A stretch of 64,000 nt of DNA. Source: Roseicyclus marinus. GTDB taxonomy: Bacteria > Pseudomonadota > Alphaproteobacteria > Rhodobacterales > Rhodobacteraceae. Under the pieces are notes generated by a model. That model was not told the origin of the DNA. It was given only the letters and a program-made list of their open reading frames with translations, and did not search any database. Location: assembly GCF_030163795.1 (NCBI RefSeq), contig NZ_JASJOF010000009.1, positions 62,001-126,000 of the forward strand. The letters run 5' to 3'. The translations under genes and the position numbers were made by a program. Below are positions 19,622-38,667 of this stretch, piece by piece; the first letter of the stretch is position 1; each line of letters begins with the position of its first letter.

Positions 19622-22600
19622 ATGCAGTCTGAAGCTTCTCCGGACCTCCACCGTTTCACCTCGCAGCCGCGCCCCGCCTTCGATTGCATGACCCTGCTGC
19701 CCGCGCGACAGATCGCGGCGATCAAGGCCGTACTGGTCGCACAGGGCAAGGTTATCCTCGACGCGCGCGACGGGATGTCGGGTTTGCAGACGGCGCTTCG
19801 GGCGGCCGAGGATATCGGCGCGCGCGACGGTGTGTTGATCACGGTCGAGGCGGGGCGGGACGACATTCTGGGAATGCTGTGCGAGGCTTTCGCGGATGTC
19901 GGCCTAATCCTCAGATGCCGCGATCTGGACGAGCTGGACCGGGTTGCCACGCTGGAACATGGCGGTCCTTGCCTTGTCGAAAGCGGGGTCTTCGCCGTGC
20001 TCGAGGCGGCGGCGCGGGTGCCTTCGGTGTCGGGGCTGATCGCGGTCGGAGAGGAAGCGGGCGGCTGGTGCGGGTCGGAGGCGGCTTTCATCTTGGCGCA
20101 GCGCATGGCCGCGCTGGGGCGCAGCCTGCCCGAGCTCGTGCCGTGGTTCATGCGCGGCGCGACCGGGCCGGAGGGCGCGGGGGCGCTGGCGCTGGCGGGC
20201 GCGGCGGGGGTCGTTCTGTCGGACGAGCTGATCTTGCTGCCCGAGAACGGCATGGAGCGGCGCGTGTTGCGCGCGTTGGATGGGGCCGACGGGACCGAGG
20301 CGGTGGTTTTGGGTGCGCCGCTTGGGGCGCCCTACCGGGTGTTCCTGCACCCCTCGCAGCCCGGGGCGCGCGCGCTGGAGGCGGAGGCGCTGCGGATCGA
20401 GGCGCGGGGCGGCGACGCGGGCCAAACCCGCACGGACTGGATCGCGGCTGTCGAGGCGGCACTGGCGGAGGCCACCGTGCGCCCGATGGGACAGGGGATC
20501 GGGATCGCGCGCGCGCTGCGCGACAGATATGGCCGGATCGGGCCGGTGATCGCGACCTATCGCGATGCCGCGCAACGTGTCCGGTCCAAGGCCTCGCTTC
20601 TGGCGGCCGCCATAGGCCCCGAGGCCGCGTTGGCCAAAGAGCATGGTTGCGCGATGCCCATCGTGCAGGGACCGATGACGCGGGTGAGCGACAGGCCCGG
20701 GTTCGCCGCCGCCGTTGCCGCCGCCGGGGGTTTGCCGATGCTGGCGCTGGCAGCGCTCCGGGCGGAAGAGATCGCACCGCTTTTGGCCGAGGCCAAGGCG
20801 CAGCTCGACGGCAAGCCATGGGGCGTGGGGATGCTGGGCTTTTTGCCGACGGAGCAATTCGCGCAGCAGATGGAGGCGGTGCTGGCCGCCGCCCCGCCCC
20901 TTGCCATCCTTGCGGGCGGGCGCGCCGACCAAGTGCTGCGGCTCGAGGCGGAAGGCATCCGGACCTATGTCCATACGCCGACCGCGCAGCTTGCGCGTCT
21001 GATGATCGACGGCGGCGCGCGGCGTCTGATCCTCGAGGGGCGGGAATGCGGCGGGCATGTAGGGCCGCTGCATTCCATGGTTCTGTGGGAAACGGTGGCG
21101 ACGGACCTTGCGCGCCATCCGGCGGCCAAGGACCTGTCGATCCTGCTGGCGGGCGGCATCCATGACGGGTTGAGCGCGGCCATGGCGATGGCGGCGGCCG
21201 CCCCGCTTTTGGAGGCCGGGGCCAAGCTCGGCGTTCTGATGGGCACCGCCTACCTGTCGACGCGGCAATTGTGCGAGGCGGGTGGTATCGGGGCCGGGTT
21301 CCAATCCGCGCTGATCGAGGCGACCGATACCGCGACGATCGAAAGCGGGCGGGGCCATTCGAACCGCTGCCTGCGCACGCCCTTCGTCGACACGTTCCAC
21401 GCCGAGCGGCGCGCGCTGCTGGCAAAGGGCACCGACCCGGAGACGATGCGCGACGCGCTGGACGGGCTGCTTCTGGGGCGGCTGCGGCTGGCCAGCAAGG
21501 GGCTGGAACGCAACGACGGGACGCTGGTGGCCGTCACGCCCGAGACGCAGCGCGCCGAGGGCATGTTCATGGCGGGCGAGGCCGCATCCCTCATCACCAC
21601 GACCCGTGACGTGGAGGATCTGCACCGGGGCGTGAGCAAGGGAGCCGCCGATCTTTTGGCGGGTATCGCGCGCCGTCCCGCCAGCGGCCTGAGCGGCAAG
21701 GATGCCGTGGCAGCGCGGGCGGCCGCCTGCGACATCGCCATCATCGGCATGGCCGTGCATGTGCCGGGCGCGACGGATGCTCAAGGGTTCTGGCGCAACA
21801 TCCTCGACAAGCGCGGCGCGATCTCGGAAATCCCGGCGGATCGCTGGGATCACCGCGTCTATTCCGACGATCCGGACGCGCCCGATTGCGTGACCAGCCG
21901 CTGGGGCGGCTTCATCGAACCCATGCTGTTCGACCCGCTGCGGTTCGGCATCCCGCCGAAATCGGTACCGCATATCGCACCGGGTCAGTTGCTGACGCTG
22001 GAGGCGGTGCGGCGCGCCTTTGAGGATGCGGGTTACGCCGAGCGCGATTTCGACCGGGAAAATACATCCGTCGTGGTGGGCGGCGAGGATGCGGGCGGGT
22101 TTCTCGGCAATGCGCTGACGCTGCGGGCGCTGGCGCCGCTGGTCACCGATGCCGAGGGTGTGGCGGAAATCCGGGACCGCACGCCGGGTTGGACCGAGGA
22201 AACCTTTCCCGGTGTTCTGACCAGCGTGGTGGCGGGGCGGATCGCAAACCGGTTCGACCTTGGCGGGGCGAATTACACGATCGATTCCGCCTGCGCGTCG
22301 AGCATCACGGCGCTGGCGCAGGCGGCCGACGAATTGACCTCGGGGCGCAGCAACCTTGTCGTGTTGGCGGGCATCGACACGACGCAGACACCCTATCACT
22401 ACACGGCGTTTTCCTCGGTCACGGCGCTGTCGCGGCGTGGTCGGCTGTCGGCCTTCGACCAATCGGCGGACGGCACCGTTCTGGCCGAGGGGGTGGCGGC
22501 CTTCATCCTGAAGCGGCGGGTGGATGCCGAACGCGACGGGGATCGCATCTATGCGACGATCAAGGCCGTCGCCTCGTCCAGCGACGGGCGGGGCATGGGC

Positions 22601-25600
22601 ATGACCGCGCCGCGCCCCTTGGGCCAGAAGCGCGCCCTGCGCCGGGCCTATCACGCGCTGGGGTCGAGCATCGCGGATATCGCCTATTACGAGGCGCATG
22701 GAACGGGCACGCCGGTGGGCGACACGGCCGAACTCGACTCGGTCGGATCGCTGATGACGGAGGCCGGCGCGGCAGGCGAAAGCTGTGTTTTGGGATCGGT
22801 CAAAGCCTTGATCGGCCATACGAAGACGGCGGCGGGGGCGGTTGGCCTCGCCAAGGTGGCGATGGCGCTGCATCACCGCACCCTGCCCCCGCAACCGGGG
22901 ATCGAGCGGCCCGTCGGGGCGCTGGGTCAGGCCGAATTCCCACTTTATTTCACGGATGGGCCGCAGCCTTGGCTGGCGGAAGATCGGCCAAGACGCGCCG
23001 GGATCAGCGCCTTCGGCTTTGGCGGCACGAACGCCCATGCCGTGCTCGAGGAGCACAGGGCCTTTGGCGAGACGCTGCCGGGCGCGCGGCGCTGGCCCGC
23101 GCATGTGGTCGCGGTGACCGGGCGTTCGGCCGAGGATCTGTCGCGGAAGTGGGCCATGGTGCGCGACCTCGCGGCACAGCCCAAGGGTGGCCCCACGCTC
23201 GAGGAGATTGCGGGGGCCGCGATGGCGCAGTGTGACGGCGAGGCCGGCCTGCGGTCCGTCATCGTGGCCGAAAGCACCACCGATCTGGCGACGCAGGCCG
23301 CGCGGATGATCGCGCATCTGGCCGATCCTGTGCGCGCGCTGCCCGACAGTGCCTTTCTGGGCGAGACGGGGCCGGTGCCGCCACTGGCCTTCCTGTTCCC
23401 CGGGCAGGGCAGCCAACGGCCCAACATGTGCCGGGAAGCTGCGGTCTACCTGCCCGAGATGCGCGAAAGCCTTGAGGCCGCGCAAGTCGCGGCGCTGGCC
23501 GGGACCGGGGAAAAGATCGGGCGCATCCTGTATCCGCCCGCCGCCTTCGATGCGGAGAGCAAGGCCGCGCAGGCCGCCCGGCTCACCCAGCCGCAAAACG
23601 CGCAGATCGCGCTTGGCGCAGTCTGTGCCGGGCTGGTCGACCTGTTGCGCCGGATCGGCGTCGCGCCCGATCTGGTGGCGGGCCACAGCTATGGGGAGCT
23701 GGTCGCACTTTATGCGGCGGGGGCGATGGGGCGTGCAGAGCTGATGCAGCTGTCGGTGGCCCGTGGCAGCGCCATGGCAGGGGCCGCGCCGGGGGCCATG
23801 TGCGCCGTGACCGCCGCGACCGATCTGGTCGCCGAGGTGATCGCGGACCATCCCGAGGTGGTGATCGCCAACCGCAACACGCCGCAGCAGACCGTGATCT
23901 CGGGGCCGAGCGATGCGGTGCGCGCGGCGGCCGACGCGCTGGAGGCCGGGGGCCAGTCGGTGCGCATGTTGCCGGTGGGCGGTGCCTTTCATTCGCCCCT
24001 GATGACAGAGGCTGCGGCACAATTCGCCAAGGCCCTCGACGCGGACATGTTCCGCGCGCCGTCTTGCCCGGTGATCTCGGCCCGGGGCGGTGCGGCCTAT
24101 CCCGAGACGCCCGTGGGCATCGCGGACCAGTTGGCGGCGCAGATGACGGAAAAGGTGGATTGGGTCGCGCAGGTCGAGACGCTCTACGAGAAAGGCGCGC
24201 GCGTGTTCCTGGAGGTCGGGCCCACGGGTGTCCTGACCCAGCTGGCGACGAGCGTGCTTGGGCGGGCGCCGGACAGCGCGGCTGAGACCGGCGGGGCCGC
24301 GGTGGAATTCCTGACGCTCGACGATGGGCGCGGCCTGCGCGGAACGCTGGGCACGTTGGCGCGGCTGTGGGTGCGGGGTTATCCGGTCGAGATGCCGGAG
24401 CTTGCGCCCCGCACCGGACAAAGCCTGTCGGGGCTGGCGGAGGCCGCAGCGCGCGCCGTGCCGAAATCGGCCTGGCTGGTCGACGGGATGCACATTCGCC
24501 CCGCCCATGCGCCTCAGCCCGTCGCGGCCGCGGCCGCGACGGATGGTTATGACCTGCGGGGGATCGACGCCCCGCCTACGCCACGCGCCGCGCCGCAAGC
24601 GGCCCACGCCCCCCCCATTGCCCAAGGAGAGCCGATGCACCCCGGAGCCGAAGACGGCCTGCTCAAAGCCTATGGCGAATACCAGGCCACGATGCGCCAG
24701 TTCCTGCACACGCAGGAGCAGGTGATGAACCTGCTTTTGTCGGGGACACCCGGCGCGGCGATGCCTGCAGCCACCGCAGCGCAGGCCTTGGCCGCGCCGT
24801 CGACGCCAGCGGTCGCCCCGGTCGCCGTGACGGCCCCGGCGCCAGCCCCTGCCCCCGCGCCAGTTGCCGAGCCTGTGGCGGCCGCCCCGGCCAAGGCCGA
24901 CGCAGCCGCCGACCGGCCCGCCATCGCCGCCATGCTGCGCGATACGGTGGCCGACCGCACGGGATATCCCGACGACATGATCGCCTTCGACGTCGATATC
25001 GAGGCGGAATTCGGGATCGACTCGATCAAGCGACTGGAAATCCTCGAGAGGTTTATCGCAGGCCTGCCCGCCACGGCGGTCGAGGCGTTCCGGGCCGACG
25101 CCGAGCGCGTGGCGCGGGAGCGGGTCCTGGATGTCTGGGTCGAGGCCGCAATGGCGGCCATCGCCCGGACGGAGGGCGCGCGCCCTTTTGATCTAGGGGC
25201 GTCGGGGACGGAGGCCGCGACGGCCCCTGCCCCGGCGCCCCGTTCCGATATCTGCCCGGCCTACCGGATGGTGCCGCGCCTGTCGCCCCTGCCCGAGGGC
25301 GATGCGCCGCTGCGCTGCGGGCCGGTCCTCGTGCTGCGCGGCCCTGAGGATCTGACCCGGGCGGTGACCCGCGCGCTGGAAGATGCTGGACTGCCCCATG
25401 CGACGGTCGACCCCGATCCGGCAAGGCTGCCCGAAGCCATCGCTGCCGCACGCAAGACGTTGGGACGGATCGGGGGCATCGTGCATCTGTCGGGGTGCGC
25501 ACCGCCCGGGGCATGGCCCGAGGCAACCGACATCGCCACGAAGGCGCTGTTTTGCGCCATATCGGACTGCCTGCCGGAGTTGGCTGCCAGCGCCACGAAG

Positions 25601-26812
25601 GACGGGCCGGAGCGGGCGCGCATCGTCGCGCTGACGCGGCTGGGCGGCCTTGGCGGACGGGCGGAGGCAGGCGGTCATGCGCCCGCGGATCTGGCGTCTT
25701 GCGCGGCAGGCGGCGTGCAGGGCCTGTTCAACAGCCTGACGCTGGAACATCCGGGGATCGTGACGCGGGGCATCGACCTTGCGCCCGAGATCACGGACGC
25801 GGCGGCGGCGGCGATCCTGATCGGGGAAATGCGGTTCGCGGACGGACGGGTCGAGGTGGGCCATACGGCAGAGGGGCGGGTGGTTCTGGATGTCGCGCCC
25901 CTCGAGATCGGCGGGACGGTCCACGCGCCGACGCTCGGCCCGGGTTCCGTGATCCTTGCCACCGGGGGGGTGCGGGGGGTGACGGCCGCGACGCTCAAGG
26001 CCATCGCGGCCCCGGGCGCGCGGATCATCGCGCTGGCCCGCCGCGCCGAACCGGAAGCGGAGGCCCCCGGACTCGCCGAAGCGGGCGATGCGCAGGCGCT
26101 GCGCCGGGTGCTGATCGCACAGGGGCGCGCCGCAGGCGCCATCCCCCGACCGCAGGAGATCGAGGCGCGGATCGAGCAGATCCTGCGCGACCGCGCGGCG
26201 CGCCGGGGGTTGGAGGATTTGCGCGCTCATGGCTTTGACGTCGAGGTTCACGCCGTCGATCTGTGCGACCGAGCGGCGACCAGCGCCCTTCTGGACGCGG
26301 CGCTGGCCCGGCACGGCCGGATCGACGCGCTGGTCCATGGCGCGGGCGTTGTCGAGGACAAGCTGGTTGCGGACAAGACGCAAGCCTCCTTTGACCGGGT
26401 GCTTGGAACCAAGACCCGGGCGCTGGACCTGTTGCTGACCCACGAGGCCGCGGCGGGCTATCGCCATGTGCTGTTCTTCAGCTCGATCGCCGGGCGGCTC
26501 GGCAACCGGGGACAGGCCGATTACGGCGCGGCCAACGAGATCCTGAACCGCGCGGCCCTTTGGTTCGCGGCCACCCGGCCCGATGTGCGCGTGGCGTCGA
26601 TCAACTGGGGACCATGGGGCGGTGCGGGCATGGCCTCGGACGCGGTCAACGCGCAATTCGTGGCGCGCGGCATCCACCCCATCGACCTAGTGGCGGGTGC
26701 GGCGTTGGCCAACCGGGCGCTGGGCAACGGCGCGGCCCCGGTCGAGTTGATCGCGGGGCGGGGCGACTGGATGGAAAACCTCGGGGCGGAAGCGCCGCCG
26801 GCACAAGCATGA
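19622..26812 (+). CDS. PUFA-synthase-like type I polyketide synthase (NPD/ER-KS-AT-ACP-KR)
   Basis: The ATG opening MQSEASPDLH, preceded by GAGGGAGA, gives 2396 residues. The order of domains is as follows. First, a PfaD/nitronate-monooxygenase-like flavin reductase (about 330-640; GPMTR, then ECGGHVG with His about 479). Second, a ketosynthase (702-1130; DSACASS with Cys about 891, HGTGT, GHTKTAAG). Third, an acyltransferase (1255-1560; FLFPGQGSQ, GHSYGE with Ser about 1356). Fourth, an Ala/Pro linker and an acyl carrier domain (GIDSIKR, Ser about 1801). Fifth, a ketoreductase (about 2110-2390; ATGGVRG, SS about 2287, Tyr about 2301). The KR and ACP resemble PfaA of polyunsaturated fatty acid synthases. 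It likely builds a polyketide or secondary lipid iteratively. No thioesterase or in-chain dehydratase is present; the dehydratase is on a second protein. Confidence 0.93.
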   Translation: MQSEASPDLHRFTSQPRPAFDCMTLLPARQIAAIKAVLVAQGKVILDARDGMSGLQTALRAAEDIGARDGVLITVEAGRDDILGMLCEAFADVGLILRCRDLDELDRVATLEHGGPCLVESGVFAVLEAAARVPSVSGLIAVGEEAGGWCGSEAAFILAQRMAALGRSLPELVPWFMRGATGPEGAGALALAGAAGVVLSDELILLPENGMERRVLRALDGADGTEAVVLGAPLGAPYRVFLHPSQPGARALEAEALRIEARGGDAGQTRTDWIAAVEAALAEATVRPMGQGIGIARALRDRYGRIGPVIATYRDAAQRVRSKASLLAAAIGPEAALAKEHGCAMPIVQGPMTRVSDRPGFAAAVAAAGGLPMLALAALRAEEIAPLLAEAKAQLDGKPWGVGMLGFLPTEQFAQQMEAVLAAAPPLAILAGGRADQVLRLEAEGIRTYVHTPTAQLARLMIDGGARRLILEGRECGGHVGPLHSMVLWETVATDLARHPAAKDLSILLAGGIHDGLSAAMAMAAAAPLLEAGAKLGVLMGTAYLSTRQLCEAGGIGAGFQSALIEATDTATIESGRGHSNRCLRTPFVDTFHAERRALLAKGTDPETMRDALDGLLLGRLRLASKGLERNDGTLVAVTPETQRAEGMFMAGEAASLITTTRDVEDLHRGVSKGAADLLAGIARRPASGLSGKDAVAARAAACDIAIIGMAVHVPGATDAQGFWRNILDKRGAISEIPADRWDHRVYSDDPDAPDCVTSRWGGFIEPMLFDPLRFGIPPKSVPHIAPGQLLTLEAVRRAFEDAGYAERDFDRENTSVVVGGEDAGGFLGNALTLRALAPLVTDAEGVAEIRDRTPGWTEETFPGVLTSVVAGRIANRFDLGGANYTIDSACASSITALAQAADELTSGRSNLVVLAGIDTTQTPYHYTAFSSVTALSRRGRLSAFDQSADGTVLAEGVAAFILKRRVDAERDGDRIYATIKAVASSSDGRGMGMTAPRPLGQKRALRRAYHALGSSIADIAYYEAHGTGTPVGDTAELDSVGSLMTEAGAAGESCVLGSVKALIGHTKTAAGAVGLAKVAMALHHRTLPPQPGIERPVGALGQAEFPLYFTDGPQPWLAEDRPRRAGISAFGFGGTNAHAVLEEHRAFGETLPGARRWPAHVVAVTGRSAEDLSRKWAMVRDLAAQPKGGPTLEEIAGAAMAQCDGEAGLRSVIVAESTTDLATQAARMIAHLADPVRALPDSAFLGETGPVPPLAFLFPGQGSQRPNMCREAAVYLPEMRESLEAAQVAALAGTGEKIGRILYPPAAFDAESKAAQAARLTQPQNAQIALGAVCAGLVDLLRRIGVAPDLVAGHSYGELVALYAAGAMGRAELMQLSVARGSAMAGAAPGAMCAVTAATDLVAEVIADHPEVVIANRNTPQQTVISGPSDAVRAAADALEAGGQSVRMLPVGGAFHSPLMTEAAAQFAKALDADMFRAPSCPVISARGGAAYPETPVGIADQLAAQMTEKVDWVAQVETLYEKGARVFLEVGPTGVLTQLATSVLGRAPDSAAETGGAAVEFLTLDDGRGLRGTLGTLARLWVRGYPVEMPELAPRTGQSLSGLAEAAARAVPKSAWLVDGMHIRPAHAPQPVAAAAATDGYDLRGIDAPPTPRAAPQAAHAPPIAQGEPMHPGAEDGLLKAYGEYQATMRQFLHTQEQVMNLLLSGTPGAAMPAATAAQALAAPSTPAVAPVAVTAPAPAPAPAPVAEPVAAAPAKADAAADRPAIAAMLRDTVADRTGYPDDMIAFDVDIEAEFGIDSIKRLEILERFIAGLPATAVEAFRADAERVARERVLDVWVEAAMAAIARTEGARPFDLGASGTEAATAPAPAPRSDICPAYRMVPRLSPLPEGDAPLRCGPVLVLRGPEDLTRAVTRALEDAGLPHATVDPDPARLPEAIAAARKTLGRIGGIVHLSGCAPPGAWPEATDIATKALFCAISDCLPELAASATKDGPERARIVALTRLGGLGGRAEAGGHAPADLASCAAGGVQGLFNSLTLEHPGIVTRGIDLAPEITDAAAAAILIGEMRFADGRVEVGHTAEGRVVLDVAPLEIGGTVHAPTLGPGSVILATGGVRGVTAATLKAIAAPGARIIALARRAEPEAEAPGLAEAGDAQALRRVLIAQGRAAGAIPRPQEIEARIEQILRDRAARRGLEDLRAHGFDVEVHAVDLCDRAATSALLDAALARHGRIDALVHGAGVVEDKLVADKTQASFDRVLGTKTRALDLLLTHEAAAGYRHVLFFSSIAGRLGNRGQADYGAANEILNRAALWFAATRPDVRVASINWGPWGGAGMASDAVNAQFVARGIHPIDLVAGAALANRALGNGAAPVELIAGRGDWMENLGAEAPPAQA

Positions 26813-26831: not shown

Positions 26832-27824
26832 ATGAGCCAAGCACAGATGACAGAGGCTGATTTCGACACGGCACCGATCGACGAGGGTATAGGCGCCATC
26901 ATCGAAGCGCGGGGACGCGGCCTTGACGATCTGGCGCCCGAGCATGTCGGCACGTTGTTGCGCCGTCACGGGGTTCTGCTTTTTCGGGGGTTCACCAAGG
27001 ACACCGAAGGGTTCGTCGCCTTTTCGGATCGGCTGACCGAGGATTTCTCGAATTACCGGGGCGGTGGCTTGCGGTTTGCGATGCTCGACCGCGAGGCGGT
27101 GGGCGGGCACAGCACGGTTCTGACCACGACGGGGCATACGCAGAGCTTCGGCATCCCGCTGCATGGCGAGATGTATTACATGAAGCATCCGCCGCAATTG
27201 CTGTGGTTCTACGCCGAGGTGCCGCCCGTCGCGGGCGGGCAGACAACGCTGGGCGATGGCGCAGCCCTGTTCCGGGCGCTCAAGCCCGAGACGCAGGCAT
27301 GGTTCCGCGAGAACGACATCAAATATGTGCGCAACCTCGTCGAGGGCGATTGGCAGGCGACGTTCATGACCGACGATCTGGAGGAGGCGCGCGCCTTTGC
27401 GGCGCAGAACGACCTGACCATGACGCATGATCCCCAGACCGGCACTGTCGGGGCGGAGTTCCGGTGTTCGGCCCTGCGCCAACACGGCGGCGAGACGCTG
27501 TTCATCAACAACGTCCTTTTCATCTACCTGGGCGAGATGGCGTTCCGGTCGGGTTGGGCGAGCAAGAACCTGCCCGGATTGCGCAGCGCGGACTGCCCGA
27601 TGGTGGTGCGCGCCGGCGATGGCGGCGAGATCCCCCGCGCCGTGATGGAGGATGTGCGCCAGACCTCGGACCGGATGACCCGCAAGATTCCGTGGGAACA
27701 GGGCGATATCGTGCTGATCGACAACCACCGTATCTTGCACGGCCGCGCCGAGACCGATGGCGGCAAGCGCTCCATCCTCGTGCGTCTGGGCGGCCCGGCC
27801 TTTCCCCTGCCGAAAGCCGCCTGA
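26832..27824 (+). CDS. TauD/SyrP-like Fe(II)/2-oxoglutarate dioxygenase
   Basis: A 330-residue TauD/TfdA-family oxygenase starting at an ATG with a GGGAGAG site, 19 bases after the synthase. The iron ligands are visible as an H-x-E pair (PLHGEMYY, about residue 114) and the distal His in DNHRILHGR (about 300), followed by an Arg for 2-oxoglutarate. The HxE form and PLHGEM context resemble SyrP-like hydroxylases that modify natural-product intermediates. It probably hydroxylates the assembled chain or a building block; the substrate is unknown. It overlaps no neighbour but is closely followed by the PLOD-like gene. Confidence 0.88.
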   Translation: MSQAQMTEADFDTAPIDEGIGAIIEARGRGLDDLAPEHVGTLLRRHGVLLFRGFTKDTEGFVAFSDRLTEDFSNYRGGGLRFAMLDREAVGGHSTVLTTTGHTQSFGIPLHGEMYYMKHPPQLLWFYAEVPPVAGGQTTLGDGAALFRALKPETQAWFRENDIKYVRNLVEGDWQATFMTDDLEEARAFAAQNDLTMTHDPQTGTVGAEFRCSALRQHGGETLFINNVLFIYLGEMAFRSGWASKNLPGLRSADCPMVVRAGDGGEIPRAVMEDVRQTSDRMTRKIPWEQGDIVLIDNHRILHGRAETDGGKRSILVRLGGPAFPLPKAA

Positions 27825-27826
27825 CC

Positions 27827-30374: not shown

Positions 30375-33300
30375 CGGGCTGGATTCTCCCCATTCCAGAT
30401 GACAGCTCCGGTGTGGCCGGGGCGGTGTGCGGCATGACCGCGCCCGCGCTGGTCGAATGGATCGTCTCCGGCGCTGTCGGAGAGTTGTTGCACTGCGACG
30501 GTGGGGCGCTGCGCCTTATGGGCGAGCCGGTGCCGGGCGCGCAGAGGATCGCGGTGCTGGAGACCGCGCCCGATCACCTGCCCGACGTGGCGATGGCGCT
30601 GGGCGCATCGCCCATGCCGCCGCCCCTGCCCCGCCACCCGCCGCTCCGGGTCGAACACCGGCCGGCCACCGCCGATGCCGGGCAGGCCCTGTGGGAGTTG
30701 AGCCTGATGCTGCACGAGCGCCGCATCGGGCCCGGGGATGGCGACGGACCGGGCGCGTCCCGCCCGTGGATCAGCGGCCTGCCCGCCCGGGAGGCGGCGC
30801 TGGCCCTGCCCGATGGACGCTGGATCGTGTTGTGGGACGCGATGGCCGTCGACCCGCCGCGGCTGATCGGGCCCGGGGTCGAGATCGTCACGCTGGCCGC
30901 CGAGGACCGGGCGGGGCTTCTGGCTGCGCTGGACCTATGGCGGCCCGGTGCCCCCTGCCCGCCCGCGACGCCCCGGCAGCGCATGCGGTTGGGCTTTGTT
31001 CATAGCGTGGGCATGGATGCCGAAAAGACCCGTGCCCTTGGCCGCAAGGTGATCGAGACGGCGAAGGGGCGCGTCACCCATCCGTCGGGATTGTGTTTCA
31101 ACCCCGAGGCGGAACGGGAACCCGTGGCCTTCCTGTTTCCGGGACAGGGCGCGCAATACCGGGGCATGTTGCGGGCGGCGCTGGATGCGCAACCCACGCT
31201 GCGCGATTGGTTCGACGCGCTGGACCGGCATTACCCGGCCGATCTGTCGCCCCTGCCCAGCCGCCTGTTGCTGGAGGATTGGGACGATGACAGCCCGTCT
31301 GCGCGCGCCTTTCACGGGTTGGCGGGCGGCGGTTACGCAAGCCTGACCGCGGCGCTGGCCCATCACGAACTGCTGGTCGATCTGGGGCTGCGGCCCGATG
31401 CCATCCTCGGCCATTCCAACGGGGAGAATGCGGCGCTGCTCGCCGCCGGGGTGATCCGCACGACGACCCGCAAGGGCAAGTTCGCGGTCCTGTCGCATAT
31501 GTGCGGGCTGTTTTCCAATGCCGATGCCAGTTTCGGCGGGGAAGAGGCCGGTGCGGGAGAGGACACGTCGATCTGCGTGGCACTGGCGCTGCCCGCCACG
31601 ATGGAGCCCGACGTTCTGGACCGGGTGCTGGACGGCGAGATCGTCTTGATGATGGACAATTGCCCCAGCCAGAAGGTCGTCTGGGGCCCCGCCAAGCTGC
31701 TGGAGGCACGGATTGCGCCGCTGCGGGCCGAGGGATTGCTGGCGATCCGCCTGCCGCTGACAGCGCCCTACCACACCCGGCATTTCCGCCCGGTCGTGGA
31801 CCGCTTCTTGGCCGATTACATGCTGCTCGACCTCGGGCCGGGGCAGATCCCGCTCTACAGCGGGCATACCGGCGCGCCGTTTCCCGAGAACCGGGCGGAG
31901 ATCATCGAGACCGCGACGCGGCAGTGGAGCGAACCGGTGCGCTTTGGCCGGGCGATCGAACGGATGCATGCGGACGGGATCCGGGTATTTGTCGACGTGG
32001 GTCCGGGCGGGCGGCTGGCCGGGTTCGTGCGCGATACGCTGGCGGATCGGCCCCATGCCGCGCTTTCGGTCGACGAAGAAAGCCGCAAGGATGGCAGCGC
32101 CCTGCCACGGATGCTGGTGCAGGGATTCTGCCTCGGTATTCTGGACGCGGTGTCGAGCGATAGGCGGGCGGCGAGGCCGCAAGAGGCGCAGCGCCCCGAC
32201 GCGGAAGCCCGGACGGCGCGGCCAGAGCCCACCATCGCGCAGACTGTCGCCGGAGCGGCCATTCCGGCCAAGATGGCAATTTCCACGGTCCCGCCGCCAG
32301 CCGGCGCGGGTGCCCTCAACGCTGCGGGACGGAGGGCGGCGCTTGCGCAGGCGCATTTCGGCCTGATGCGAGATCACCTCGCACAGGAGGCGCGGATCTT
32401 TGCCGGTTTGCGCGACCGTCTGGCAGGGACTGCGAGCGGCGCAGCGCGGCGGCACGCAGAAGCGCCTGAACCGGACCTGCTGCGCCCGTTCGGTGCGCAC
32501 CGGATCGAGCTGACGGACGAGGGCATGACCGTTGATTTGCGGATGACGCCCGAGCGCCAGATGTTCTTGCGCGATCATGCCTTTTGCAAGGCACGCTCGG
32601 TCGATCCGGGCGCGACCGGTTTGACGGTTCTGCCTTTGATGGTCTCGGCCGAGATCGCCGCCGCGGCTGCGGTGCAGCGGGCAGGACCCGGCTGGCATGT
32701 GGTCGCGCTGGAAGGGCTGCGCGGGCATCGCTGGATCGCGGGGGATACGGGGGGGATCGACCTGCAGTTGGACTTGCGCGCGCTGCCCACGACGGAGACC
32801 GGATCGCGGCGCTACGGTGTGACGCTCTCCCATCGCAATGCGCAAGACGACAGCGGCGGCGGTGTCGCGGCCACCTGCGAGGTCATCGTGAACCGGCGTC
32901 CTGCGCCAAGCCCTGCCCCCTTGCCCGCCACGCTGCCGCCGCCCCCTGCCACCTATCCCGACGGCACGCGGATGATCACCGGCGAAGGCTTTGCCGAGCG
33001 CCTGTTCCACGGCCCTTGTTTCACCAGTATCGGCGCGGTCGGTGGCTGGTCCGACACCGGCATCGAGGTTGCGGTGACCGCGCCGTCGGAGACGGGTTTC
33101 GTCACGCCCGATCTGTCGGGGCCGCGCGTGATCAACGGACCGCTTCTGGACAATGCGGGGCAGATCCTCGCGCTGCAGCAAAAACATGCGACGATCCGCA
33201 GTTTCGGCCTGTTCCCGGTTCTGGTGGAGCGCATCAGGTTTTTCGGGCCGCGGCCGGAGGCGGGCGCGCCCTTGAGCGTGGTCACGCGGCAGGTTGCGGG

Positions 33301-34216
33301 GGAGAATACGGTCACCGGCGATTTGGATTACCGCGACGCGTCGCAGCGCGTGGTGATGCGGGTGGAAGGCATGAAGATGGTGTTCATCCATTGGCCACGC
33401 CGGTTCGAGGCGAGTTTCTTTCGCGGTCGCGCGGGCGGGTCGCTGGCCGAACCGCTGGAGGCACCCGAGGGCGTCACTCTCCGCATCCTGCGCGGCTTCG
33501 AAGGGAGTTTCCTGACGACGAGCAACCGGATCTGGCTGCGGTCGTTGGCCTGGGCCTGCCTGTCGGCGGAGGAACGCGCCGCGTTCCACGCGCTGCCGCC
33601 GCGCGGCCCGCGGCAGGAGGAATGGCTTTTGGGGCGGATCGCGGTCAAGGAAGCCGGGCTTTGCGCCCTGCCCGATCCCGATGCTGCCGACCTCGTCGAG
33701 CTGAACGTGGCGCAAGACGAGGGCGGGAGGCCGACACTTGTGCTGCCGGACGGCGCGCGGGTGCCCTGTTCGATTTCCCACAGCAACGGCACGGCTGCGG
33801 GCGCTGTGGCGGCCCCGGGCTGGGCCATCGGGCTGGACATCGAGCCGATCAGCGGGCTGGATGATCCGATCGGGCGCAATGTGCTGGCCTTCGATCCCTC
33901 CGAACGTGCGGCCCTCGACCGGTTCGGGCCCAAGGCCGTGTGGTGCGCGAAAGAGGCTGCGGCCAAGGCCATAGGCACCGGCCTGATGGGCGCGCCAACC
34001 CGGTTCAAGGCGCATCTGCGCGGGGACGCGCTTCACGTATCTGTTGCGTCGGTGGAGATACCCGTTACGTTTTCGAGGTCCGAAAGCCACCACGTCGCGC
34101 TGTGCCATATCCCGCAGAGCCAAGCCGCAGAGATTGCGGCGCATCTGACCATCTCTGCCCAACCACTTGCCAAACGGGGAACGGCCCATGTCGACCATTC
34201 ACACCATCGCCCATAG
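30371..34216 (+). CDS. AT-DH-phosphopantetheinyl transferase fusion protein
   Basis: A 1281-residue protein starting with GTG inside the previous stop. Residues about 1-240 are unassigned and Ala/Pro-rich. An acyltransferase follows (about 250-580; FLFPGQGAQ, GHSNGE with Ser about 349). A PKS-type double-hotdog dehydratase spans about 700-1030 (His about 736 in FLRDHAF, HGPCFTSI, Asp about 927 in LLDNAGQ). The C-terminus (about 1060-1260) is a Sfp/EntD-type phosphopantetheinyl transferase (GLDIEP with Asp about 1156, WCAKEAAAK about 1191). It would supply dehydration and acyl loading and activate the cluster's own carrier proteins. The free ACP gene starts 29 bases inside its end. Confidence 0.9.
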   Translation: MTGWILPIPDDSSGVAGAVCGMTAPALVEWIVSGAVGELLHCDGGALRLMGEPVPGAQRIAVLETAPDHLPDVAMALGASPMPPPLPRHPPLRVEHRPATADAGQALWELSLMLHERRIGPGDGDGPGASRPWISGLPAREAALALPDGRWIVLWDAMAVDPPRLIGPGVEIVTLAAEDRAGLLAALDLWRPGAPCPPATPRQRMRLGFVHSVGMDAEKTRALGRKVIETAKGRVTHPSGLCFNPEAEREPVAFLFPGQGAQYRGMLRAALDAQPTLRDWFDALDRHYPADLSPLPSRLLLEDWDDDSPSARAFHGLAGGGYASLTAALAHHELLVDLGLRPDAILGHSNGENAALLAAGVIRTTTRKGKFAVLSHMCGLFSNADASFGGEEAGAGEDTSICVALALPATMEPDVLDRVLDGEIVLMMDNCPSQKVVWGPAKLLEARIAPLRAEGLLAIRLPLTAPYHTRHFRPVVDRFLADYMLLDLGPGQIPLYSGHTGAPFPENRAEIIETATRQWSEPVRFGRAIERMHADGIRVFVDVGPGGRLAGFVRDTLADRPHAALSVDEESRKDGSALPRMLVQGFCLGILDAVSSDRRAARPQEAQRPDAEARTARPEPTIAQTVAGAAIPAKMAISTVPPPAGAGALNAAGRRAALAQAHFGLMRDHLAQEARIFAGLRDRLAGTASGAARRHAEAPEPDLLRPFGAHRIELTDEGMTVDLRMTPERQMFLRDHAFCKARSVDPGATGLTVLPLMVSAEIAAAAAVQRAGPGWHVVALEGLRGHRWIAGDTGGIDLQLDLRALPTTETGSRRYGVTLSHRNAQDDSGGGVAATCEVIVNRRPAPSPAPLPATLPPPPATYPDGTRMITGEGFAERLFHGPCFTSIGAVGGWSDTGIEVAVTAPSETGFVTPDLSGPRVINGPLLDNAGQILALQQKHATIRSFGLFPVLVERIRFFGPRPEAGAPLSVVTRQVAGENTVTGDLDYRDASQRVVMRVEGMKMVFIHWPRRFEASFFRGRAGGSLAEPLEAPEGVTLRILRGFEGSFLTTSNRIWLRSLAWACLSAEERAAFHALPPRGPRQEEWLLGRIAVKEAGLCALPDPDAADLVELNVAQDEGGRPTLVLPDGARVPCSISHSNGTAAGAVAAPGWAIGLDIEPISGLDDPIGRNVLAFDPSERAALDRFGPKAVWCAKEAAAKAIGTGLMGAPTRFKAHLRGDALHVSVASVEIPVTFSRSESHHVALCHIPQSQAAEIAAHLTISAQPLAKRGTAHVDHSHHRP

Positions 34217-34472
34217 TATCGCCAAGGTCCGCCCGGACCTCGATCCGGACTGGCTCGATGGCGACACGCAGCTGCGCGCAGACCTCGGCCTGAGCTCGAT
34301 CGACCTGTTGAACGTGCTGGCGCTGATCACGCAGTCGGTGGGCAAGAAGATCATGTACGAGCCGCTGTTGCTGCCAGACGGCAAACCGCGCCCGGATCTG
34401 AGCATCGGGGAGCTGGCCGCCTTCGTCGATGCGAACCGCGACGCGGCCGATCCCAAGATCGTGGCCATGTAG
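34188..34472 (+). CDS. stand-alone acyl carrier protein
   Basis: The ATG opening MSTIHTIAHS follows a GGGGAA site and overlaps the end of the preceding gene by 29 bases, giving 94 residues. The phosphopantetheine attachment region reads ADLGLSSIDLLNVLAL, with Ser at or next to the usual position. Helical pattern and length suit an ACP. It could carry a starter unit, or the substrate for the tailoring enzymes. It should be activated by the phosphopantetheinyl transferase domain encoded just upstream. Confidence 0.88.
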   Translation: MSTIHTIAHSIAKVRPDLDPDWLDGDTQLRADLGLSSIDLLNVLALITQSVGKKIMYEPLLLPDGKPRPDLSIGELAAFVDANRDAADPKIVAM

Positions 34473-34819: not shown

Positions 34820-34834
34820 GGACCGGGACAGGAA

Positions 34835-36457
34835 ATGGAATTCGTCTCCGTCGTTCATCGCGCGATCCTGTCCAGCGGACGCTGGGTCTATGTCTATGTC
34901 GCGCTGTCCAGCCTCGGGACGCTGGGTGTGGCGATCCTCGTGAATACGGTCACCGATTACGACCCCGCCGCGGGCCCCGATTACGAATTGTTCGCCGCCT
35001 TCATCCTTGTCTGCGCCGTGACCGTCATGTCCCGGGGCGAGACGACGCGGATCATGAACGCGGTCGGCGAAGGCATCGCCCATCACATGCGGGTGCAATA
35101 CGCCCGCCTGCTCAAGGAAGCCGACCTCGTGCAGGTCGAGATGATCGGGCAGGAAAAGATCAAGTCCACGCTGGCGCGCAATGCGCAGATCCTGGCCGAA
35201 AGCCCGGCGGTTCTGACGCAAGGCGTGGCCTCGGCGGTGACTTTCGTTCTGGCCACGATCTATGTCGCGACCCTGTCGATGATGGCTGCGATCCTTGTGG
35301 TCGCGCTGACCATCGTGGTGGTTCTGGCCAGCCGTCTGCGCACGCAGCGCGCGCGGGATGCCATGGCGTTGGGTCAAGGCGCGGAGCGGCAGTTCTTCGA
35401 CAGTTTCGACCATCTGCTGGAGGGTTTGGCAGAGGCGCGGATGGACCGCGACCGGACCGAAGACCTGTTCGAGAATTTCCTGATCAAACGTGCCGTTTCG
35501 GCGCGAACCGCGCGGCTTTCGGCGCTGGATTCCATGATCGCCTTCGGGGTTCTGGTCTTTGCCAGTTTCTACCTTCTGCTCGGCACCGTCACCTTCATCA
35601 CGCCCCAATATGTCGACAGCGCCGCCACCGCGATGAAGATCGTCTATGTGTCGTCCGTCATCTGGCTGCTGATCGAGGGGCTGTTGCGGATCATGCCCAC
35701 GATCCTGCGCGGGGATGCGGCCTTTACCGAGTTGCGCAAGCTGGAACGCCAGCTGCGCGCCATCCAGCACCGCGAGACGGTGCCGAGCCTCGATCTGCCG
35801 GACTTCGAGGTGCTGACACTGGACAAGCTGTGCTACGCCTACCCCCCCCGCGAAGACAGCGCGGAAAAGACATTCGGCATCGGACCTTGCGATTTCACCC
35901 TTTCGCGCGGCGAGATCGTCTTTGTCATCGGCGGCAACGGATCGGGCAAGACCACGTTGTTGCGCAACCTGTGCCGGCTTTACGAGCCGACCTCGGGCGC
36001 GGTGTGCTGGAACGGCATCCCGATCACGGCGGCCAACGCGATCAGCTACCGCAAGCGCATCTCGGCGATTTTTGCGAGCTTTCACCTGTTCGACCGTCTT
36101 TACGGGCAGCGCGACATCCCCGAGGAGGCCGTGGACGCGGCGTTGGATAAGGTGGGCCTGAAGGGCAAGACCGCCTATCATGACGGCCGGTTCACGACGC
36201 TTCGCCTGTCGACGGGGCAGCGCAAGCGGCTGGCGCTCGCCATCGCGATGCTGGAGGATCGCGACATCATGGTGTTCGACGAGATCGCCGCCGAACAGGA
36301 CCCCGAATTCCGCCGCCGCATTTACGAAGAGATCCTGCCGGACCTGCGCGCCAGCGGCAAAGCGGTGCTCGTTATCTCGCATGACGAGCGGTATTTTCAC
36401 TGTGCCGACAGGCTTTACTTCATGGAAGAGGGGCAGCTTTCGCTGCGGTCAACATGA
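34835..36457 (+). CDS. SyrD/PvdE-like ABC exporter (fused membrane and ATPase domains)
   Basis: A 540-residue half transporter with six transmembrane helices in residues 1-320 and an ATPase domain after about 335. Walker A is GGNGSGKTT, the signature is LSTGQRKRLALA, Walker B is IMVFDEIAAEQD and the switch His is in ISHDE. The architecture matches the cyclic-peptide exporter family (SyrD, PvdE), which moves natural products out of the cytoplasm. It probably exports the cluster product or a lipid-linked intermediate as a homodimer. The stop overlaps the SPFH gene start (ATGA). Confidence 0.9.
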   Translation: MEFVSVVHRAILSSGRWVYVYVALSSLGTLGVAILVNTVTDYDPAAGPDYELFAAFILVCAVTVMSRGETTRIMNAVGEGIAHHMRVQYARLLKEADLVQVEMIGQEKIKSTLARNAQILAESPAVLTQGVASAVTFVLATIYVATLSMMAAILVVALTIVVVLASRLRTQRARDAMALGQGAERQFFDSFDHLLEGLAEARMDRDRTEDLFENFLIKRAVSARTARLSALDSMIAFGVLVFASFYLLLGTVTFITPQYVDSAATAMKIVYVSSVIWLLIEGLLRIMPTILRGDAAFTELRKLERQLRAIQHRETVPSLDLPDFEVLTLDKLCYAYPPREDSAEKTFGIGPCDFTLSRGEIVFVIGGNGSGKTTLLRNLCRLYEPTSGAVCWNGIPITAANAISYRKRISAIFASFHLFDRLYGQRDIPEEAVDAALDKVGLKGKTAYHDGRFTTLRLSTGQRKRLALAIAMLEDRDIMVFDEIAAEQDPEFRRRIYEEILPDLRASGKAVLVISHDERYFHCADRLYFMEEGQLSLRST

Positions 36458-37623
36458 GAAGATCGAACGACACCGACCTCGACCCGAACGAGCCCGACAC
36501 CGAGATCGTCATCCCCTTGGTCAGGCGAAGCTTTTTCGTCTACCCGGTGGCGGCCATCGTGCTGGCCGGCTTCATCATGATGGCGCTGTCGCGGTCGATC
36601 TTCGTCTATGTCCTGCCGGGTGAGATCGGTGTGCGCTACGACCCGTTCTTTGGCGGCACCCAGACGGAGGTCTATACCGAGGGGCTAGTGATCAAGTTCC
36701 CGTGGGACAGGTTTTACACCTATGAAACCCGCCTGCAGAACAGCCGGCACACGATGCGCGCGCTCTCCTCGGAGGGGATGGGGTTCGACATCGAGATTTC
36801 CGTGCTGTATCGCCCGCGCGCGCAAGCGTTGGGGGAATTGCACCAGGAACTGGGGCCCAATTACCGCGAGCGCGTGATCGAACCGATCGTGGTTTCCACA
36901 GTACGCGAAATCTTCGGCCGCTACACGTCGCACGCGGTTTATTCGACCGATTTCGCCACCTTCCAGGAACAGATCGCGGACCAATTGCAATCAACAGCGG
37001 TGCGCGATCTGGTGGAATTCACCTCTGTCCTGATCATGCGGTTGGAATTGCCCGAGATCGTGCGGCTGGCCATCGAGCGAAAGCTGGAACAGGAACAGAT
37101 CGCGGAATCCTATACCTTCATCCTCGACAGCCAGCGGGCCGAGGCCGAACGCCGACGGATCGAGGCCATCGGCTTGCAGAATTTCTATTCCATCGTCGCT
37201 TCGTCGCTGAGCGAGGAGGTTCTGACATGGCAGGGGATCGACGCGACTGTTCAACTGGCCAATTCCGAGAATGCCAAGGTGGTCGTCATCGGCTCGGGCG
37301 AGGGACAATTGCCGATCATTCTGGGCGGTGAGATCGGATCATTGCCACCCGGCCCGCCCGCGGCCGTGGAGCCCGCGACGTCGGAGACCGGGGTGCTGCG
37401 GTTCGACAGCCTGCCGCCGCTCTTCCCCGACACATCGCTCTCCATCCCGCCGATCGAACGCCCGGGTTTCCCAACCACGCCGGGCAGTCAGCCCGCCCCG
37501 GTGCCGCCTACGCCGGGCGTAGGATCCGTCGCGCCGTCGGGCGCGGGGGACATGCAGCTGCCCTGGCCGATGGTGCCCAATGAAGAGCGCCTTCCCGCCA
37601 CGACGGACGTTCAACGGAATTGA
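36454..37623 (+). CDS. SPFH/prohibitin-like membrane protein
   Basis: A 389-residue protein with one N-terminal transmembrane helix (about 28-50) after a charged cytosolic leader. An SPFH/band-7 domain follows (about 55-215; PGEIGVRYDPFFGG, KFPWDRFYTYETRLQN). A Glu/Arg/Ala-rich helical segment (about 200-240; LERKLEQEQIAE-like) leads to a proline-rich C-terminal tail of about 80 residues. Prohibitin-like proteins build membrane scaffolds or microdomains and can associate with proteases or transporters. Translational coupling to the exporter gene suggests a scaffold for that transporter, which is inference. Confidence 0.85.
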   Translation: MRRSNDTDLDPNEPDTEIVIPLVRRSFFVYPVAAIVLAGFIMMALSRSIFVYVLPGEIGVRYDPFFGGTQTEVYTEGLVIKFPWDRFYTYETRLQNSRHTMRALSSEGMGFDIEISVLYRPRAQALGELHQELGPNYRERVIEPIVVSTVREIFGRYTSHAVYSTDFATFQEQIADQLQSTAVRDLVEFTSVLIMRLELPEIVRLAIERKLEQEQIAESYTFILDSQRAEAERRRIEAIGLQNFYSIVASSLSEEVLTWQGIDATVQLANSENAKVVVIGSGEGQLPIILGGEIGSLPPGPPAAVEPATSETGVLRFDSLPPLFPDTSLSIPPIERPGFPTTPGSQPAPVPPTPGVGSVAPSGAGDMQLPWPMVPNEERLPATTDVQRN

Positions 37624-37717
37624 CGTAGGGAAACAAACGCATGTCCCAAGATCCCGCCATTCATGCTAAAAGGAGACAAACGAGTAAGCAGCGTTCTGTT
37701 CCGAGGAGAGAATCGTC

Positions 37718-38449
37718 ATGAGGCGCAGGCTCTTGCTTGCCCCTTTTCTTGCCCTAGAGGCCCCATTCGCGCTGGGAAGGTTCGCCCTGTCGACCGGCGC
37801 AAGATTGAAAGAGATCGCCATGCCCACGAACTCGAAGACATCCGACACGACGGCCGCGGAAACCAAAAGCGCAGCCAAGGAAACCGCCGTGACCGAAACG
37901 GCGCGTGACACGACCGAGGAACAGGCCGTGCATGACCGTCAGTTCCGCGCCGAGATGATCGTCAAAGAACACATGATCGCGTCGCTCGGGCTGGGGCTTA
38001 TCCCCTTTCCGCTGGTCGACATCGCGACCGGCGTCGCCTCGAATGTCACGCTGGTGAGCCGCCTTTGCGCGCTTTACGACCAGCCGTTCAAGGCATCGAT
38101 CGCCCGTACCGCAATTCTGACGATCATGGGAACCGTAGGCTCCATCGGGGCGGCTGTCACCGTGGGGTTCAGCCTTGCGAAGTTCGTACCGGGCATCGGC
38201 ACCGCGGCGGGCACTGTGACCCTGCCGATCGCCAACGCGGCCACCGCCTACATGATCGGCAAGATGTTCATCGGCCATTTCGAGATGGGCGGAACCCTGT
38301 TCGATTTCGATCCCCGGTCGAACGTCCCGCAGGCCCGCAGCGCCTATGCCAAGGGGCGCGCCATGGCGACCGATATTCTGACCTCGCGCAAGAAAGCGTC
38401 CGATGACACGGCAGCCGCCTCGGCCGAGGCCGCGGCAGCGACCGCCTGA
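37718..38449 (+). CDS. DUF697/YcjF-like membrane protein
   Basis: A 243-residue protein starting at an ATG with a strong GAGGAGAG site; an internal ATG at 37820 is a weaker alternative. The first ~65 residues are polar and Thr/Glu/Lys-rich. A glycine-rich hydrophobic block follows (about 90-180; LGLIPFPLVDIATG, GTVGSIGAAVTVGFSLAKFVPGIG) that resembles DUF697 domains found in YcjF-type and GTPase-linked membrane proteins. No GTPase domain is present. Function is unknown; it likely sits in the inner membrane and may act with the SPFH protein. Confidence 0.7.
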   Translation: MRRRLLLAPFLALEAPFALGRFALSTGARLKEIAMPTNSKTSDTTAAETKSAAKETAVTETARDTTEEQAVHDRQFRAEMIVKEHMIASLGLGLIPFPLVDIATGVASNVTLVSRLCALYDQPFKASIARTAILTIMGTVGSIGAAVTVGFSLAKFVPGIGTAAGTVTLPIANAATAYMIGKMFIGHFEMGGTLFDFDPRSNVPQARSAYAKGRAMATDILTSRKKASDDTAAASAEAAAATA

Positions 38450-38478
38450 CACCAGATGCGAACGCGACAGGCGAACCC

Positions 38479-38667
38479 ATGATCTACATACTGGGCGCAG
38501 TCTACATCGCCTTGTGCATCCCGGTGGCCATCGTTGGCACCGGGTCACGGCTCGGATTTTTCGGAACCTTCCTGTTCTCGCTGCTGCTGACGCCGTTGCT
38601 CATGATCTTTCTTCTGATCATGCTCACACCGCGCAAGCGCAAGGTGGCAAAGCGCGGATCGAGCTAA
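38479..38667 (+). CDS. very small membrane protein, unknown function
   Basis: A 62-residue protein 29 bases after the DUF697 gene. It is almost entirely hydrophobic, with two membrane helices (about 3-20 and 28-48), and ends in a basic tail (PRKRKVAKRGS). No family is recognised. It is the last gene of the plus-strand cluster; the sequence turns noncoding and AT-richer after it. Confidence 0.65.
   Translation: MIYILGAVYIALCIPVAIVGTGSRLGFFGTFLFSLLLTPLLMIFLLIMLTPRKRKVAKRGSS

What the first reader, a model, noticed from the sequence alone, without database searches (positions are those of the whole stretch)
19622..38667. Large unassigned PUFA-synthase-like polyketide/secondary-lipid cluster
Thirteen closely spaced plus-strand genes combine a one-chain PfaD-like ER-KS-AT-ACP-KR synthase, an AT-DH-phosphopantetheinyl transferase protein and a free ACP. 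Tailoring genes encode a 2-oxoglutarate dioxygenase, a PLOD-like GT, a citrate-synthase-like enzyme and a methyltransferase; the rest encode a SyrD-like exporter, an SPFH protein and small membrane proteins. Domains and motifs are seen directly. PfaA-like KR and ACP context is established family knowledge. I cannot match the full set to any described pathway. A glycosylated, hydroxylated and methylated secondary lipid that is exported is the inferred product type.
Basis: partly seen in the sequence, partly recalled or inferred. Interest (0 to 1): 0.88.

Follow-up and report, generated by a model that had tools for sequence, protein, structure and literature searches.

The report
Citrate-headed secondary lipid gene cluster
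A rare bacterial gene cluster joins a self-contained long-chain fatty acid factory to enzymes that probably add a methylated citrate head and perhaps a sugar and pump the product out, so it probably makes an exported lipid not yet described.

Summary
They encode an ER-KS-AT-ACP-KR synthase, TauD dioxygenase, glycosyltransferase-like protein, citrate-synthase-like enzyme, methyltransferase, AT-DH-PPTase, ACP and an export module. The set recurs in the near-identical Fluviibacterium aquatile / strain SC52 pair and, less one small membrane gene, in a distant alphaproteobacterium (G952). No other complete copy was seen in the samples searched. The KS is outside the PUFA-synthase clade; it lies in a clade with phenolic-lipid ArsA-type synthases, on its own long stem. 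New assignment: the citrate synthase and methyltransferase are specifically related to an adjacent Burkholderia pair that I identify as AfcS/AfcT (BolR/BolS in bolagladin), which build an O-methylated citrate/malate head on a fatty acid. Best reading: a dedicated iterative fatty acid synthase whose chain carries a methylated citrate-derived head, is hydroxylated, possibly glycosylated, and exported. Whether citrate primes or releases the chain is open. The exporter (ABC, SPFH, DUF697, 62-residue protein) is a recurrent module, often beside NRPS/PKS genes. New variant of a known kind; the product is inferred, not shown.

The parts
19622..26812 (+). Iterative synthase A: N-terminal region, PfaD-type ER (NMO), KS, malonyl-type AT, single ACP motif, KR
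   Evidence: Pfam; active-site Cys891, EAHGTGT, IGHTKTAA, GHSYGE, GIDSI, YGAAN motifs
26832..27824 (+). TauD/clavaminate-synthase-like 2-oxoglutarate dioxygenase
   Evidence: Pfam; HxE and distal H kept in all 5 aligned rows
27821..28582 (+). Small glycosyltransferase-like protein with DxxD motif, weakly PLOD/LH3-like; start CTG 27821 or GTG 27827
   Evidence: searches (below cut-off; E 0.16), D122/D125 invariant in the 4 rows
28579..29706 (+). Citrate-synthase-like enzyme, AfcS/BolR type
   Evidence: Pfam; 35% to the Burkholderia enzyme; H224, H266, D313, R274 kept
29703..30374 (+). SAM-dependent methyltransferase, AfcT/BolS type
   Evidence: 46% to the Burkholderia enzyme
30371..34216 (+). 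Synthase B: AT without an arginine aligned to the malonyl-binding one, DH, PPTase; lacks the KS seen in related B proteins
   Evidence: Pfam
34188..34472 (+). Free acyl carrier protein
   Evidence: DLGLSSI motif, matched in L031, L032, L124
34484..34819 (+). Small membrane protein, two predicted TM stretches
   Evidence: 65% in L031/L032; no match in the other 20 loci searched, G952 included
34835..36457 (+). YojI/SyrD-type ABC exporter
   Evidence: NCBIfam PRK10522 298.7 bits and TIGR01194 258.5 bits, both below cut-off
36454..37623 (+). SPFH/Band 7 protein
   Evidence: Pfam
37718..38449 (+). DUF697 membrane protein
   Evidence: Pfam; matched in L031, L032, L108
38479..38667 (+). 62-aa membrane protein of the export module
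   Evidence: 83% in L031/L032, 73% in L108, match in 15 of 22 loci searched

Best explanation
The cluster is a self-contained pathway for an exported, citrate-headed secondary lipid. The PPTase of protein B activates the ACPs. Protein A (ER-KS-AT-ACP-KR) with the DH of protein B forms a complete iterative, reducing fatty acid synthase. The citrate-synthase-like enzyme makes a citrate-type unit by Claisen condensation of a thioester with oxaloacetate, and the methyltransferase O-methylates its tertiary hydroxyl, as the related pairs do in AFC-BC11 and bolagladin. That unit becomes the polar head of the chain, most likely loaded as a starter by the second AT or via the free ACP. The dioxygenase hydroxylates and the glycosyltransferase-like protein may glycosylate the lipid, and the ABC/SPFH/DUF697/62-aa module exports it. 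Shown: gene content, domains, active-site residues, homology, synteny, KS placement. Inferred: every reaction, the order of steps and the product.
For: Complete domain set. KS in the ER-fused clade with ArsA-type rows, 99/96 support, outside the PUFA clade. Against 72,556 plasmid records the CS query finds 4 records (E limit 1e-5) and the MT query 3 (E limit 1e-15); the same two Burkholderia records are in both, with CS and MT adjacent in the same order as here. In the papers, loss of afcS takes C3H4O2 or C3H4O3 and loss of bolR takes C3H4O2 from the acyl part, and loss of afcT or bolS takes the methyl group (PMC12186527 section 12; PMC7756342 passages). Catalytic His/His/Asp kept. The three genomes checked (own, G952, the Fluviibacterium genome) each hold a separate, far higher-scoring citrate synthase. 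Ten genes are kept in the distant G952 cluster and an eleventh, the 62-aa protein. In 13 stretches with related or Ars-like synthases none of g2, g3, g4, g5, SPFH or DUF697 has a match at 0.01, so the head module looks specific to this variant, as far as those stretches reach.
Against: No metabolite data. CS identity to the Burkholderia enzyme is only about 35%, and its best NCBIfam match is a citryl-CoA lyase model, far below cut-off. Purified BolR gave free citrate, and a separate acyl-CoA synthetase (BolB) is proposed to re-activate it (PMC7756342); no such ligase is among the 12 genes, nor the acyl-AMP ligase, KAS III or FAD oxidoreductase of afc/bol. No thioesterase is present, so chain release is unexplained under the starter model. 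The dioxygenase is not specifically related to the Burkholderia one. B-type ATs of related clusters also lack an arginine at the malonyl position, several having one two columns away, so this does not prove citryl loading. The export genes have lower GC (about 0.62 from 34 kb on) than the synthase genes (about 0.70), so the two halves may differ in origin.
Confidence: 0.58

Rival explanations
1. The citrate-synthase-like enzyme acts at the end, not the start: it condenses the finished acyl thioester through its alpha carbon with oxaloacetate and hydrolyses it, releasing a 2-alkylcitrate. It would take the place that type III PKSs hold in Ars clusters and that alkylcitrate synthases hold in fungal pathways.
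For: No thioesterase, hydrolase or acyl-CoA synthetase domain in the 12 genes, whereas two of the five related clusters whose tailoring genes were scanned (L039, L085) carry an alpha/beta hydrolase and L074 and L075 are annotated with one. Ars-type loci of Beijerinckia and Methylosinus place KAS III-type genes, taken as type III PKSs after PMC3098273, between the two synthase genes; here g4 lies between the synthase genes too. The domain set is otherwise complete without a special starter.
Against: The closest characterised relatives (AfcS, BolR) put the citrate-derived part at the far end of the chain (PMC12186527, PMC7756342). No pocket model: the structure prediction failed. The fungal parallel is recalled; the two listed papers that use the term alkylcitrate synthase are fungal.
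Confidence: 0.27
2. g4 is a citryl-CoA-lyase-like or supply enzyme that only feeds acetyl-CoA or malonyl-CoA; the product is an ordinary hydroxylated, methylated, glycosylated fatty acid with no citrate part.
For: Best NCBIfam matches are citryl-CoA lyase models, below cut-off.
Against: CS-MT pairing with the Burkholderia pair; conserved condensing residues; no citrate-activating ligase domain in the cluster.
Confidence: 0.12
3. A true PUFA synthase variant making polyunsaturated chains.
For: TIGR02813 is the best NCBIfam match of g1.
Against: Score 830.6 is below the cut-off of 1010.1; KS outside the PUFA clade; one ACP motif in g1; one DH; ER fused in the main chain.
Confidence: 0.03

Closest known systems
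Secondary lipid synthases of Shulse and Allen (PMC3098273), especially Types M to P
   Same: KS, ACP, KR, AT, DH, ER and PPTase on few proteins; KS grouped with ArsA-type rows; PPTase with the P1b' pattern hShxH (CSISH)
   Different: KS on its own long stem; B protein lacks the KS; citrate synthase, methyltransferase, dioxygenase and glycosyltransferase-like genes between A and B
ars phenolic lipid operon (Azotobacter in the paper; Beijerinckia and Methylosinus loci L035, L036 here)
   Same: ER-KS-AT-ACP-KR plus DH-PPTase proteins, with the chain-capping genes between them
   Different: No type III PKS; a citrate-synthase-like enzyme instead; extra AT in protein B; different exporter
afc (AFC-BC11) and bol (bolagladin) clusters of Burkholderia
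   Same: Related adjacent citrate synthase and O-methyltransferase pair that makes an O-methylated citrate/malate fatty acid head (PMC12186527, PMC7756342); compared here with two Burkholderia loci that I take for afc, not with BolR/BolS themselves
   Different: No peptide machinery, acyl-AMP ligase, KAS III or FAD oxidoreductase domain; the chain would come from a dedicated type I synthase, not from a C14 acid or the primary FAS
Fused pfaDA / pfaBC-PPTase synthases (Renibacterium, Aquimarina, Flavobacterium; Ottowia pfaBC lacking KS-CLF) as passages of PMC13291983 describe
   Same: ER fused to the KS protein; B protein with PPTase (Aquimarina, Flavobacterium) or lacking KS-CLF (Ottowia)
   Different: The Aquimarina, Flavobacterium and Ottowia clusters are PKS-NRPS hybrids; no citrate synthase was mentioned in the passages seen
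Fungal alkylcitrate pathways (maleidrides and others; recalled, listing)
   Same: Multidomain synthase plus citrate-synthase-type enzyme, some with 2-oxoglutarate oxygenases (recalled)
   Different: Fungal; no homology tested; no O-methyl head recalled

Membership tests
Secondary lipid synthase (Shulse and Allen 2011) | At least one KS, ACP and KR plus AT/DH/ER/PPTase domains in one cluster | tested here: met
   (ACPs by motif)
Secondary lipid synthase (Shulse and Allen 2011) | KS phylogeny shared with validated FAS/PKS pathways | tested here: met
   15-row clade with ArsA-type rows, 99/96
PUFA synthase (PfaA) | TIGR02813 score over 1010.1 bits | tested here: not met
   830.6 bits
PUFA synthase (PfaA) | KS inside the PfaA clade | tested here: not met
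   the 11 rows from genomes over the PfaA cut-off are all in another clade (21 rows, 100/99)
ars (Type P) cluster | Type III PKS between the synthase genes | tested here: not met
   no such domain in the 12 genes
ars (Type P) cluster | KS inside the ArsA clade | tested here: not met
   the two Ars-type rows form their own pair, 100/100; the window is in a neighbouring group of the same clade
AfcS/BolR head-group enzyme | Specific sequence relationship and catalytic His/His/Asp | tested here: met
   (against two Burkholderia loci taken for afc)
AfcS/BolR head-group enzyme | Condenses oxaloacetate with an acyl thioester | not testable with these tools
   needs an assay
AfcT/BolS O-methyltransferase | Specific sequence relationship and adjacency to the citrate synthase | tested here: met
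afc/bol lipopeptide cluster | Peptide-forming genes, acyl-AMP/CoA ligase, KAS III | tested here: not met
   no such domain in the 12 genes
PLOD/LH3 glycosyltransferase | Pfam GT_PLOD gathering score | tested here: not met
   22.1 against 27 bits; DxxD motif shared in a weak alignment
SyrD-type cyclic peptide exporter | TIGR01194 cut-off of 286.2 bits | tested here: not met
   258.5 bits

The most novel reading that the evidence does not exclude
A bacterial megasynthase that ends its chain by citrate-synthase-type Claisen condensation: the enzyme both releases the long acyl chain and installs a citrate head, giving O-methylated, glycosylated alkylcitrates. This would be a bacterial counterpart of fungal alkylcitrates and a new kind of capping enzyme on an Ars-like synthase, exported by a so far unnamed four-protein module (ABC, SPFH, DUF697, 62-aa protein) that serves secondary metabolites in several Alphaproteobacteria.
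Probability: 0.25. Interest if true: 0.8.

Novelty: new variant of a known kind. Interest (0 to 1): 0.62.

Why it matters
How the citrate-derived head of bolagladin and AFC-BC11 is attached (starter unit or late addition) is left open in the two papers whose passages I read. Here a related enzyme pair sits beside a complete dedicated synthase in a compact cluster from bacteria not known to me as pathogens, which makes the question testable by reconstitution. It also adds a class of probable amphiphilic, possibly metal-binding lipid (the metal binding is a guess from bolagladin) and points to a recurrent export module beside NRPS/PKS genes.

Tried and rejected
Rejected: PUFA product (score, KS tree); TCA-cycle role of g4 (separate, far higher-scoring citrate synthase in the own genome, G952 and the Fluviibacterium genome; of SC52 only the plasmid was searched); GFGHP as a mark of citryl-CoA lyases, as I wrote in a note, because a solved 2-methylcitrate synthase shows the same GFGHP (3o8j); the TauD protein as proof of a shared afc pathway, because among 104 plasmid records the 25 rows seen show other TauDs after SC52 and no Burkholderia. 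Led nowhere: AlphaFold models of g4 and g3 from two-row alignments (mean pLDDT 38 and 34), so no fold search was run; one lone GT relative in G1224 (39%) with no other cluster gene in 19 kb; the Acaryochloris TauD neighbourhood. First KS tree held wrong rows (further ORFs of the FabF locus) and was replaced; of 59 KS stretches collected, 8 near-duplicates or odd rows were dropped. In one search the L082 B protein was translated in a wrong frame and did not enter the AT alignment. In one search the ACP-KR part of the G952 synthase was not listed; one search shows it at 50% identity over 637 residues.

Full report
Genome and observation. The window is G000:C25:62001-126000 of a 3.6 Mb genome whose name is not told; the named relatives of the cluster are Rhodobacterales. 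The finding's stretch holds 12 supported plus-strand genes from 19622 to 38667, tightly packed, five neighbouring pairs overlapping by 4 bases. Pfam gives NMO (ER), KS, AT, KR for the first protein; TauD; a sub-threshold GT_PLOD; Citrate_synt; Methyltransf_11; AT, PS-DH, ACPS for the 1281-residue protein; ABC, Band_7, DUF697. ACP motifs were read directly. The last gene, a 62-residue membrane protein at 38479-38667, was found by comparing frames with the SC52 plasmid.

Distribution. A one-protein scan of 84,980 species with g6 (close relatives only; near kin of the window may be left out) found one locus, in Fluviibacterium aquatile, with gene 1 cut by the contig end (taxonomy now gives the name Meridianimarinicoccus aquatilis). 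A plasmid search found the set in the same order on pSC52_2 of Rhodobacteraceae bacterium SC52. These two loci are 98.4% identical over 20,429 bases, so they count as one lineage. A third lineage, G952 (same class, other family), came from an SPFH search of 337 class genomes, 15 of which, the own included, matched at 1e-25. It carries ABC 66%, SPFH 53%, DUF697 54%, g1 57% (N-terminal part) and 50% (ACP-KR part), TauD 60%, GT 62%, CS 49%, MT 60%, g6 42%, ACP 62% and the 62-aa protein 73%, but no match to g8, and has TolC, HlyD and RND genes between GT and CS. A CS profile made before G952 was found matched only the own genome among 398 phylum and 13 genus genomes at 1e-45 (G952 was not in those samples as far as listed). 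A GT profile matched 2 of 390 order genomes, the own and a lone GT. The cluster is rare and patchy, as a mobile cluster would be.

The synthase. A g6 search of 295 family genomes matched 220, mostly over the AT part. The seven strongest non-own loci (L002-L008) carry a KS ahead of the AT, which g6 lacks. In a 51-row KS tree the window and SC52 form a 100/100 pair on a stem of 1.05 changes per site, within a 10-row clade (98/96; six rows from same-family genomes and two from other families besides the pair), within a 15-row clade (99/96, inner order open) that also holds the Beijerinckia and Methylosinus Ars-type rows, a Streptomyces row and two more. The 11 rows from genomes over the PfaA cut-off (7 on one stretch alone, 4 with neighbouring stretches added) all lie in another clade (21 rows, 100/99). 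G952 was not in the tree, but its KS is 75.6% identical to the window's. KS, AT, ACP, KR, DH and PPTase active-site motifs are kept. The PPTase has CSISH, the P1b' pattern that PMC3098273 (sections and passages read) gives for Types M, N, O, P, R, S and T. The AT of g1 keeps the arginine typical of malonyl ATs; in g6 and the other B proteins no arginine aligns there, though several have one two columns away (the meaning of that arginine is recalled).

The head module. Against 72,556 plasmid records, g4 found 4 records (E limit 1e-5) and g5 found 3 (E limit 1e-15); beyond SC52 both found the same two Burkholderia replicons, and g4 also a weak Nonomuraea match. There the CS-like (35%) and MT (46%) genes are adjacent in the same order, followed by a TauD gene, near a carrier protein, an AurF-like protein, a KAS III-like protein (just below cut-off), a PLP decarboxylase and ABC genes. 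This fits the afc cluster of PMC12186527 (sections 8 and 12 and passages read); the identification is mine, not an annotation. In that paper loss of afcS takes C3H4O2 or C3H4O3 from the acyl part and loss of afcT takes a methyl from the malic acid portion. In PMC7756342 (passages read) purified BolR makes citrate from acetyl-CoA and oxaloacetate, the bolR mutant makes a metabolite smaller by C3H4O2, the bolS mutant loses the O-methyl, and citryl-CoA is proposed as starter, made from citrate by a CoA synthetase. Catalytic residues of the four clusters' enzymes and the two Burkholderia ones align with those of the own housekeeping enzyme. In 13 stretches with related or Ars-like synthases (10 to 40 kb, some cut by contig ends) g2, g3, g4, g5, g7, SPFH and DUF697 have no match at 0.01.

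Mechanism. I commit to a citrate-headed secondary lipid. The starter model follows the closest characterised relatives. The release model is favoured by the absence of any thioesterase and of a citrate-activating ligase, and by g4 lying between the synthase genes as the type III PKS genes do in Ars clusters. I give the starter or undecided form 0.58 and the release form 0.27.

The export module. Around 16 SPFH loci from 14 other genomes, an ABC relative lies within 6 kb in 12, DUF697 in 12, both in 9 (some contigs are short). Of the 16, 8 contain an NRPS or KS match, one of them the G952 cluster itself (a small control of two window flanks and one other locus had none). The 62-aa protein matches in 15 of 22 loci at 0.1, the weakest at 3e-4; L031/L032 are near-identical, and L089/L120 are by length and matches the same replicon. 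On annotated plasmids the module lies beside NRPS genes in Azospirillum brasilense and Skermanella mucosa. In the window the export half has lower GC than the synthase half, so the two may have come together from different sources. One literature search for this combination gave two papers, neither on this subject by title and abstract start; one of the two holds both 'cyclic peptide export' and 'prohibitin' and was not read.

What is not in print. Searches for alkylcitrate synthase with bacteria, citryl-CoA starter units, AfcS/BolR and Fluviibacterium or Rhodobacterales with secondary lipids listed no paper that by title and abstract start describes this gene set. Only listings were seen there, capped at 8 to 15 rows, and subscription papers are mostly missing. 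A further citrate-synthase lipopeptide paper (Dose et al. 2020) is known to me only from a reference list and could not be opened.

Noticed in passing
window 34835-38667; L087, L088, L089, L108-L123: Recurrent export module: YojI/SyrD-type ABC, SPFH, DUF697 and a ~62-aa membrane protein, often beside NRPS or PKS genes in Alphaproteobacteria.
   Followed up: partly
window 39644-59670: Exopolysaccharide genes downstream: two NDP-sugar epimerases/dehydratases, GT2, UDP-glucose/GDP-mannose dehydrogenase, alginate lyase, Sel1 protein, AlgX and a weak DltB-like (MBOAT-type) match: alginate-like. Azotobacter cysts combine alginate and alkylresorcinols (recalled), but no such genes are annotated beside the SC52 copy.
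   Followed up: partly
window 15070-16607: Minus-strand TctA gene of a tripartite tricarboxylate transporter next to the cluster; its neighbours were not tested.
   Followed up: no
window 9899-15021: HlyD and AcrB-type RND efflux genes. A TolC-HlyD-RND set lies inside the G952 cluster.
   Followed up: no
L074 17068-32042; L075 11068-26039: Streptomyces plasmids carry a related two-protein synthase with ACP, alpha/beta hydrolase, glycosyltransferase and methyltransferase; L074 has no match to g4.
   Followed up: partly
L037-L042, L082-L085: Related synthase clusters; tailoring genes scanned in L037, L038, L039, L082 and L085 include phosphodiesterase, alpha/beta hydrolase, UDP-GT-like, epimerase and TPR genes, products unknown.
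   Followed up: partly
L032 28494-28724: A 231-base tet(A) prediction by PLSDB lies just after the SC52 cluster on the other strand; a short fragment by its length.
   Followed up: no
window 27821-27829: The glycosyltransferase gene seems to start with CTG (27821) at the place where relatives have ATG, or with GTG at 27827.
   Followed up: no
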